Shown here in pieces: positions 14,023-15,740 of a DNA stretch of 53,336 nucleotides; the stretch's first letter is position 1; each line of letters opens with the position of its first letter. This DNA comes from Candidatus Methanomethylicaceae archaeon (GTDB lineage: Archaea > Thermoproteota > Methanomethylicia > Methanomethylicales > Methanomethylicaceae), in assembly GCA_025057955.1 (NCBI GenBank), contig JANXER010000007.1, positions 1 through 53,336 on the forward strand. Direction: 5' to 3'. Made by a program: the position numbers and the translations under genes. Under the pieces are notes generated by a model. That model did not search any database, had not been told where the DNA came from, and saw only the letters and a list, made by a program, of their open reading frames with translations.

Positions 14023-14391
14023 ATGAAGAAAGAGTTAAGTGAAAAATTTAAAAAGAAAATGGGCTTTGTTCCAAGTATAATGGAATTAGCCACAGAATTA
14101 GATCCTAAATTAACCATGTTCTATGAATTCTGTGATTCAACTATTCAAGAAGATGGTGCTTTACCCTCAAAGATAAAAATGTTAATAATAATGGCCATGG
14201 GTGCACAACGTCATTGCAAGGAATGTGTAGTATCCGCTATGCGTGGAGCTTATAAAAAAGGAGCAACTATTGAGGAAATTCTAGAGACAATAAGATGTAT
14301 AGCAGTGGCTGGTGGTGCTCCTGCTCTCTCTGCTTGTAAGGATGCATTACAACTTCTAAAGGAAGGGAAACTCAAGGAAGAGGGTTGCTAG
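14023..14391 (+). CDS. AhpD-like / carboxymuconolactone decarboxylase family protein
   Basis: This 122-residue protein has the AhpD/CMD fold pattern: ALPSKIKMLIIMAMGAQRHCKECVVSAMRGAYKKGATIEEILETIRCIAVAGGAPAL. The CxxC in RHCKECV (~residues 65-70) is the redox pair of the AhpD-type peroxidase branch, which uses it to reduce a peroxiredoxin partner or peroxides. The start ATG follows GGTG by 6 nt. It ends 6 nt before the Nei-like DNA glycosylase gene, so the two form a possible oxidative-damage pair. A thiol-redox role is inferred; the true partner is unknown. Confidence 0.88.
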   Translation: MKKELSEKFKKKMGFVPSIMELATELDPKLTMFYEFCDSTIQEDGALPSKIKMLIIMAMGAQRHCKECVVSAMRGAYKKGATIEEILETIRCIAVAGGAPALSACKDALQLLKEGKLKEEGC

Positions 14392-14397
14392 TGAATA

Positions 14398-15171
14398 ATG
14401 GTTGAAGGGCCTACAGCTAGAGCATATTCTATTAAAATTAGTAATGAATTCAAGGATGAAGTAATTTCTGAAATATTCACTAGATCTAAGAAAGTTTTAA
14501 TAGATATAAGAGAAATCATTGGTAGAAAATTTTCAGGAGCAACTTCTTTAGGGAAAAACATATTGCTTTTTTTTGAAGATATTGCCATAAGAATTCACTT
14601 AATGCTCTATGGAACAATTCACATCTATAGAAAAAATGATGAACTCATTAAACCAAAAGAAAGAGCTAGATTAATAATTATTGGAAATAATAAAAAATTA
14701 GTGGTTTTCAATGCACCAATCATTGAAATTAATAAGAAGGATTTTTTAATTGATAATTTAAGAAATACTCTAGGTCCTGATCCTTTAAATGAACAATGGG
14801 ATGAAGAGAAGGCTTTGAAAAATTTACTAAATTTTCCTAATGAAAAGATTGGAGTAATTCTTCTTAATCAATCAATTATAGCAGGGATTGGAAATATAAT
14901 TAGAAATGAAATTCTATTCAGAGTGGGTATAAATCCAGAGAGAAAGGTAAGTGAAATTTCTAAGGAAAAATTAAATAATATTGTGAAAATTTATTATGAA
15001 CTTAGTCATGAGTTTTTAGATTTAAAACTTAATAGCCGCAGCATAAGAGAAATATTAATGGTTTACAATAAATTTAATCAATCTTGTAAAGTTTGTGGTA
15101 ATAAAATAATATTCTATATTCAGCAGCCAATTAAGAGAAAAACCTTTGTATGTAGTAATTGCCAAAGATAA
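14398..15171 (+). CDS. Fpg/Nei-family DNA glycosylase with N-terminal valine
   Basis: A base-excision DNA glycosylase/AP lyase of the Fpg/Nei family, 257 aa. It begins MVEGPTARAYS, matching the invariant M-P-E-G-P start except that the Schiff-base proline (position 2) is valine, as in vertebrate NEIL3. The Glu at position 3 is kept. The middle contains LLNQSIIAGIGNIIRNEILFRVGINPERKV, the helix-two-turn-helix. The C-terminus is a four-Cys zinc finger, CKVCGNKIIFYIQQPIKRKTFVCSNCQR. It removes oxidised bases such as thymine glycol or hydantoins. The start is fixed by the motif, so Val2 is not an artefact of start choice. It lies next to a peroxide-type AhpD-like gene. Confidence 0.92.
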   Translation: MVEGPTARAYSIKISNEFKDEVISEIFTRSKKVLIDIREIIGRKFSGATSLGKNILLFFEDIAIRIHLMLYGTIHIYRKNDELIKPKERARLIIIGNNKKLVVFNAPIIEINKKDFLIDNLRNTLGPDPLNEQWDEEKALKNLLNFPNEKIGVILLNQSIIAGIGNIIRNEILFRVGINPERKVSEISKEKLNNIVKIYYELSHEFLDLKLNSRSIREILMVYNKFNQSCKVCGNKIIFYIQQPIKRKTFVCSNCQR

Positions 15172-15173
15172 GA

Positions 15174-15740
15174 CTATTCGTAGAGTACTCCAAGATCTTT
15201 GAGCTTTTGATATATTTTGTTAACAGCAGTCTTCACTTCATCTTCATGTTTTGCTCCAGTACAGACCATTTTTCCAGAGGAGAAAATTAAAAGAACCACC
15301 TTTGGTTCACTCATTCTATATATTAAGCCCGGAAATTGCTCTGGCTCATACATCACATTATCAAGTAAATATGCTGCCTTCTCCAAGTTAACTTCAGCAT
15401 TTAGATTTGCAGAAGCTACTATATTCTGTATTTGTATTTCAGGCTCCCCTATAATTACTATATTCTTTTCCTTCAGATTCTTTATAATTTTGCTTATGGC
15501 ACTATGTACTTCTTTTTCAGATTTTGCTCCAGTACAGACCATTTTTCCAGAGGAGAAAATTAAAGTTGCAGTTCTAGGCTTTGATAGTCTATATATTAAG
15601 CCCGGAAATTGCTCTGGATTATACTCTACTCCAGGAACGTTTGCAGATATCACATTGAGATCTATCGTCTGGTTAATTGTTATAGATGCAACGACGTTTT
15701 CAATTTTAAATGAAGGTTTCAACACAGCAAATCTCTCCAA
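15174..15740 (-). CDS. tbp: TATA-box binding protein
   Basis: The archaeal general transcription factor TBP, 188 aa, with the two-fold repeat of the saddle. Half 1 is [18 protein letters not shown]...[39 protein letters not shown]. Half 2 is [18 protein letters not shown]...[39 protein letters not shown]. The start is TTG 15740; a TATA-like TTTAAATTTTTTAAAA lies about 25-30 nt upstream and no ribosome site is visible, so the mRNA may be leaderless. The two halves share 43-nt and 30-nt identical DNA stretches. It ends 2 nt from the convergent nei-like gene. Confidence 0.98.
15249..15291. repeat. Intragenic direct repeat in tbp, copy 1 (43 nt)
   Basis: TTTTGCTCCAGTACAGACCA... over 43 nt is identical to 15522-15564; both encode [14 protein letters not shown] on the minus strand. 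A second pair of 30 nt, 15315-15344 and 15588-15617 (TCTATATATTAAGCCCGGAA...), encodes FPGLIYR in both halves. Codon-level identity across the ancient TBP duplication points to recent homogenisation. Confidence 0.9.
15522..15564. repeat. Intragenic direct repeat in tbp, copy 2 (43 nt)
   Basis: Partner of 15249-15291, lying in the sequence for the first TBP half (minus strand). It is identical over 43 nt including silent positions. Confidence 0.9.

What the first reader, a model, noticed from the sequence alone, without database searches (positions are those of the whole stretch)
14398..15171. Nei/Fpg glycosylase with Val2 (NEIL3-like) in an archaeon
The start MVEGP places valine at the position of the catalytic proline. 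Vertebrate NEIL3 also has Val2 and prefers single-stranded or crosslinked DNA. An archaeal enzyme with the same change, plus an adjacent AhpD-like thiol peroxidase gene, is unusual.
Basis: partly seen in the sequence, partly recalled or inferred. Interest (0 to 1): 0.5.

Follow-up and report, generated by a model that had tools for sequence, protein, structure and literature searches.

The report
Archaeal Nei-like glycosylase without catalytic proline
This archaeal DNA-repair gene really does start with valine where related enzymes have the catalytic proline, but it belongs to a widespread, unstudied archaeal family in which that residue is valine or threonine, so its match to animal NEIL3 at this one residue is most likely coincidence and not proof of a NEIL3-type enzyme.

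Summary
ORF 14398-15171 (+) encodes a complete 257-aa Fpg/Nei glycosylase starting M-V-E-G-P. In-frame TAG and TGA lie directly upstream, so no alternative start can restore Pro2. The structure model is an intact Fpg/Nei fold (pLDDT 95), and Glu3, Lys53, the H2TH helices and the four zinc Cys are kept. Val2 is a family trait: orthologs in Methanomethylicia, Bathyarchaeia, Wolframiiraptor and Culexarchaeum have Val2; deeper members (Njord/Asgard, Thermoplasmata, Acidilobaceae) have Thr2. In the best trees this V/T family is sister to NEIL2 + NEIL3 + a second archaeal family, apart from Nei/Nei2 and Fpg, which partly supports the NEIL3 idea. However, Val is nested inside Thr, NEIL2 keeps proline, the base-gap loop is Nei-like (HLM[LM]YG, not NEIL3's HFGMKG), and NEIL3's extra zinc fingers are absent. 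Inheritance of Val2 from a NEIL3-type ancestor is unsupported, though AU tests do not exclude rival placements. The AhpD-like neighbour is conserved only within the genus. Best reading: an uncharacterised archaeal Nei-type glycosylase/AP lyase using the Val/Thr amine exposed by methionine aminopeptidase. The closer archaeal counterpart of NEIL2/3 is a separate M-E-G-P family, found in passing.

The parts
14398..15171 (+). Fpg/Nei-type DNA glycosylase/AP lyase, 257 aa, V/T archaeal family
   Evidence: H2TH over Pfam cut-off; AF2 model pLDDT 95.1, best PDB matches Fpg, NEIL3, Nei
14389..14394 (+). in-frame TAG (stop of the upstream CMD gene) and TGA that fix the start codon
   Evidence: sequence
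14401..14406 (+). codons of Val2 (position of the catalytic proline) and Glu3
14554..14556 (+). codon of Lys53, equivalent of E. coli Nei Lys52 / Nei2 Lys51; invariant in the family
   Evidence: role of Nei2 Lys51 from PMC11323726
14599..14613 (+). base-gap loop L68-M69-L70-Y71-G72, like Nei N68-Q69-L70-Y71-G72, unlike NEIL3 F-G-M-K-G
   Evidence: alignment
14770..14991 (+). H2TH domain, with GIGNIIRNE
   Evidence: Pfam PF06831, residues 125-198
15085..15162 (+). C-terminal zinc finger (Cys230, 233, 252, 255) with Arg247
   Evidence: invariant or nearly invariant in alignments
14023..14391 (+). CMD/AhpD-family protein, 122 aa, 6 bp upstream; probable co-transcription, linkage seen only in the genus
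15174..15740 (-). TATA-binding protein, convergent neighbour, not part of the system
   Evidence: Pfam TBP, 229 bits

Best explanation
The gene encodes a bifunctional Fpg/Nei-type DNA glycosylase/AP lyase of an archaeal subfamily (V/T family) that has no proline at position 2. The initiator Met is removed by methionine aminopeptidase because residue 2 is small (Val, or Thr in relatives). The freed alpha-amine of Val2 then attacks C1' of a damaged (probably oxidised pyrimidine) nucleotide or of an AP site, forms a Schiff base, and cleaves the strand by beta-elimination, with Glu3 and Lys53 assisting. Shown here: start codon, conservation of V/T2 and of the catalytic residues, fold, family, presence of MetAP-II. 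Inferred: Met removal, chemistry, substrate. Val2 arose from Thr2 inside the family, so its identity with NEIL3's Val2 is most likely convergent, even though the family as a whole lies beside the NEIL2/NEIL3 branch. The conserved Nei-like loop HLM[LM][YF]G suggests it can fill the gap left by a flipped base in duplex DNA, as Nei does, and so need not prefer single strands as NEIL3 does.
For: Fixed start and Val2. M1, E3, G4, P5, K53, N166, R169, E171, R247, C230, C233 invariant and C252, C255 nearly so across 20 members. In the 63-row tree one monophyletic family (97/98) holds 17 Val2 rows and 8 Thr2 rows, with the Val rows nested (100/96). Sister to NEIL2+NEIL3+M-E-G-P family at 99/97, repeated under a simpler model at 98/97. 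AF2 pLDDT 95.1, pTM 0.90; TM-scores 0.81-0.88 to Fpg, NEIL3 and Nei. MetAP-II in the genome (306 bits). Nei2 shows that the N-terminal residue, Glu3 and Lys51 carry the activity, and NEIL3 that Val works once Met1 is removed (PMC11323726; PMC9737245).
Against: No biochemical data. AU tests do not reject grouping with Nei (p = 0.278) or directly with NEIL3 (p = 0.099). NEIL1, plant and many bacterial lineages are not in the tree, and NEIL2/NEIL3 rows are stitched from PDB alignments. On a proline/non-proline basis, one ancestral loss with regain in NEIL2 is as short as two losses. No conserved gene neighbourhood points to a pathway.
Confidence: 0.68

Rival explanations
1. It is a true archaeal NEIL3 counterpart: loss of proline happened once in the ancestor of the V/T family, NEIL3 and the M-E-G-P family, and the enzyme unhooks crosslinks or acts on single-stranded DNA.
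For: V/T family is beside NEIL2/NEIL3/M-E-G-P in the best trees; GNII[K/R]NE motif shared with NEIL3; grouping V/T with NEIL3 is not rejected (p = 0.099).
Against: Val nested within Thr in the family; NEIL2 (proline) nearer to NEIL3; NEIL3 matches the M-E-G-P family far better (178 bits) than the V/T family (86 bits); Nei-like loop; no NZF/GRF domains.
Confidence: 0.15
2. It is a plain Nei-type enzyme whose proline was replaced neutrally; any small residue that lets Met be removed will do, and substrate range is that of E. coli Nei.
For: AU test does not reject V/T + Nei (p = 0.278); loop and total length like Nei; full-length match to the NCBIfam endonuclease VIII model (95.7 bits, below its cut-off of 252); Nei2 keeps glycosylase activity without Pro2 (PMC11323726).
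Against: Bootstrap favours the NEIL2/3 side (V/T+Nei in 1 of 200 replicates); residue 2 is only ever Val or Thr in the sampled family, which argues against free neutral change.
Confidence: 0.14
3. Catalytically degenerate H2TH protein that binds damage without lyase activity.
For: The classical nucleophile is changed; catalysis was not tested.
Against: Glu3, Lys53, Asn166, Arg247 and the zinc Cys are conserved; NEIL3 is active with Val2.
Confidence: 0.03

Closest known systems
NEIL3 (vertebrate; PDB 3w0f, 8b9n, 7z5a)
   Same: Val as N-terminal residue followed by EGP, GNII[K/R]NE H2TH motif, fold (TM 0.81-0.83, 23-24% identity); neighbouring branch in the best tree
   Different: Nei-like HLM[LM]YG loop instead of HFGMKG; no NEIL3-specific insertion before the catalytic Lys; no C-terminal NZF/GRF zinc fingers; Val derived from Thr within the family
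E. coli Nei (endonuclease VIII; PDB 1k3w)
   Same: full-length alignment (residues 3-256), loop position Q69-L70-Y71 matched by M69-L70-Y71, Arg/Phe-bearing Fpg loop absent in both
   Different: Pro replaced by Val/Thr; GNYLRVE in Nei versus GNIIRNE; below the NCBIfam cut-off
Mycobacterial/actinobacterial Nei2
   Same: single-domain Nei-type with tetracysteine zinc finger and equivalent Glu3/Lys51
   Different: Nei2 has MPEGD; V/T family has no conserved helicase neighbour, whereas Georgenia Nei2 lies beside an ATP-dependent helicase
Fpg/MutM (e.g. L. lactis)
   Same: overall fold (TM 0.88)
   Different: V/T family lacks the four-residue Arg/Phe-bearing loop and Pro2; the Fpg clade is separate at 100/99

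Membership tests
Fpg/Nei (H2TH) superfamily | H2TH domain and zinc finger with conserved Arg | tested here: met
   PF06831 62.7 bits over cut-off; Cys4 and Arg247 conserved. Pfam N-terminal and zinc-finger models are below cut-off.
Fpg/Nei (H2TH) superfamily | Glu3 and catalytic Lys | tested here: met
   E3 and K53 invariant
Fpg/Nei (H2TH) superfamily | N-terminal proline nucleophile (usual, but absent in the accepted member NEIL3) | tested here: not met
   Val2; start fixed by in-frame stops
NEIL3 | Val as N-terminal residue | tested here: met
NEIL3 | falls inside the NEIL3 branch in a tree | tested here: inconclusive
   best tree places it outside NEIL2+NEIL3+M-E-G-P; V/T+NEIL3 not rejected, p-AU 0.099
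NEIL3 | HFGMKG loop lacking gap-filling residues | tested here: not met
   HLM[LM]YG in the window family
NEIL3 | C-terminal NZF and GRF zinc fingers | tested here: not met
   protein ends at the Fpg/Nei-type zinc finger, 257 aa; no further domains; domains described in PMC9737245
NEIL3 | preference for single-stranded DNA or interstrand crosslinks | not testable with these tools
   needs enzyme assays
E. coli Nei / NCBIfam endonuclease VIII | curated family score | tested here: not met
   95.7 bits against 252
Nei2 | curated family score, MPEGD start, helicase (lhr) neighbour | tested here: not met
   87.1 bits against 400; MVEGP; no recurrent neighbour

The most novel reading that the evidence does not exclude
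The archaeal V/T family, the archaeal M-E-G-P family and animal NEIL3 share one ancient loss of the catalytic proline, and the archaeal enzymes are crosslink- or single-strand-directed glycosylases whose nucleophile is the amine of Val, Thr or even an unprocessed Met1. Eukaryotic NEIL2/NEIL3 would then trace to archaea.
Probability: 0.12. Interest if true: 0.72.

Novelty: new variant of a known kind. Interest (0 to 1): 0.4.

Why it matters
Textbook accounts tie Fpg/Nei chemistry to an N-terminal proline, with NEIL3 as the known exception (PMC11323726). A conserved archaeal family with Val or Thr at that site, reaching into Asgard archaea and lying beside the NEIL2/NEIL3 branch, gives simple single-domain enzymes, some from thermophiles, in which to test what the proline is for. 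The papers I could read do not describe archaeal Fpg/Nei proteins; a review of glycosylase origins assigns 8-oxoG repair to Fpg in bacteria and OGG-type enzymes in archaea (PMC8307549).

Tried and rejected
Upstream start restoring Pro2: excluded by stops. Chance or frameshift: rejected, intact orthologs at 54-72%. AhpD as a functional partner: it is adjacent only in G000 and G001; other holders of the AhpD ortholog (G002, G004, G005, G008, G012) lack the glycosylase, and G024 has the glycosylase but no AhpD match. Conserved neighbourhood or lhr-like helicase partner: none among 28 loci. Viral carriage: one distant Pro2 Nei-like hit in viral contigs for the V/T family, none for M-E-G-P. Plasmids: only ordinary Nei, Nei2 and Fpg for the window protein; plasmids and phages likewise for M-E-G-P. 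Assigning it to NEIL3 from a single residue: rejected. Papers on N-terminal valine in archaea: none found.

Full report
Observation. The ORF at 14398-15171 (+) starts ATG GTT GAA GGG CCT (M-V-E-G-P). The three codons before it are TAG, TGA and ATA, so there is no upstream start that could bring back a proline. The TAG is the stop of a CMD/AhpD-family gene 6 bases upstream. The protein has an H2TH domain over the Pfam cut-off, matches Fpg, NEIL3 and Nei structures by sequence, and is the only member of its kind found in its 1.2 Mb genome. The AlphaFold model is confident (pLDDT 95.1, pTM 0.90) and matches Fpg, NEIL3 and Nei almost equally (TM 0.88, 0.83, 0.86).

Family. Orthologs occur in scattered genomes of the phylum: 15 of the 300 sampled carry one. 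Named relatives come from Methanomethylicia, Bathyarchaeia, Wolframiiraptor/Geocrenenecus, Culexarchaeum, Njordarchaeota and other Asgard, Thermoplasmata and Acidilobaceae. Because proteins of same-family genomes equal those of named Methanomethylicota MAGs (L003/L061, L006/L067), the window most likely comes from a Methanomethylicia archaeon (inference). Position 2 is Val in all sampled members of the subclade that includes the window, and Thr in all deeper members. Val and Thr both allow Met removal by methionine aminopeptidase (general knowledge), and MetAP-II is present.

Relation to NEIL3. Profile scores of the V/T family (A1) against PDB sequences do not single out NEIL3: Neisseria Fpg 88.7, NEIL3 86.4, E. 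coli Nei 83.6, Nei2 66.6 bits. A tree of 63 proteins puts the V/T family (97/98) beside a clade of NEIL2, NEIL3 and an archaeal M-E-G-P family (99/97), apart from Nei, Nei2 and Fpg. A tree with a different model and without the longest branch agrees (98/97). AU tests are weaker: grouping V/T with Nei gives p = 0.278, with NEIL3 alone p = 0.099, with NEIL3 + M-E-G-P without NEIL2 p = 0.061, and with Nei + Nei2 p = 0.062. The placement is therefore favoured, not proven.

Why Val2 is probably convergent. Within the V/T family the Val rows are nested (100/96) among Thr rows. NEIL2, which by general knowledge keeps proline, is closer to NEIL3 than the V/T family is. The fewest changes of residue 2 on the tree are five, with Val arising at least twice. 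On a simple proline/non-proline count, however, one early loss with regain in NEIL2 is equally short, so an old shared loss is not excluded.

Active site. Glu3, Lys53, the H2TH Asn166 and Arg247 with the four zinc Cys are kept. The four-residue Arg/Phe-bearing Fpg loop is absent, as in Nei and NEIL3. At the other gap-filling site the family has HLM[LM][YF]G, close to Nei's HNQLYG (Gln69-Leu70-Tyr71, which fill the gap in Nei by general knowledge), where NEIL3 has HFGMKG. This favours a Nei-like use of duplex DNA and is the main structural argument against NEIL3-like behaviour (inference). NEIL3's C-terminal NZF/GRF fingers are absent.

Mechanism. Work on mycobacterial Nei2 shows that Pro2 and Lys51 are needed for AP lyase, while 5-OHU glycosylase needs Glu3 and Lys51 but not Pro2; the authors note that NEIL3 uses Val after Met1 removal (PMC11323726; PMC9737245). 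The same chemistry with the Val2 amine is the simplest reading here. Substrate and pathway are unknown; the genome also has one clear HhH-GPD glycosylase, so other base excision is available.

Neighbour. The CMD/AhpD-like gene is adjacent only in the two genomes of this genus. Five other genomes of the family carry its ortholog without the glycosylase. It lacks the usual AhpD His. No gene recurs beside the glycosylase across 28 loci except in near relatives.

A closer NEIL2/NEIL3 relative in archaea. L030/L085 (Thermoproteota) and L140-L142 (Asgard) form a family whose profile scores NEIL3 178 bits, NEIL2 112 and Fpg 87. All four read ATG-GAA at the start, so Glu directly follows Met1; in L030 and L141 no other standard start is possible. 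If translated as read, the initiator Met takes the place of the catalytic proline and may not be removed before Glu. This is a separate observation and deserves its own test.

Limits. One genome-collection scan used a pattern containing MVEGP, which favours Val members, but the Thr members came from the second pattern and from family searches that do not have this bias.

Noticed in passing
L085 (=L030), L140, L141, L142: Archaeal (one Thermoproteota, three Asgard) NEIL2/NEIL3-like proteins starting M-E-G-P with no residue between Met1 and the catalytic Glu; profile scores NEIL3 at 178 bits. Initiator Met may serve as N-terminal amine.
   Followed up: partly
L012 (G131): Fpg-type protein starting ATG-GAG-TTC-CCT (M-E-F-P-E), again without the proline codon, inside a Pro2 clade.
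   Followed up: no
L129 (G489, Asgard): Divergent Fpg-like protein starting M-V-E-L-P-E, apparently an independent Val2 outside the V/T family.
   Followed up: no
L020/L099 (G126): V/T-family gene whose C-terminal zinc finger is lost after its first Cys, probably a frameshift or decaying copy.
   Followed up: no
L069:1360-2016: ERCC4/XPF-like nuclease gene directly downstream and co-oriented with the glycosylase in one Thermoprotei MAG (judged from sequence by eye).
   Followed up: no
window 14023-14391: CMD/AhpD-family protein with CxxC but Ala in place of the usual AhpD His; 93% identical in the sister species.
   Followed up: partly
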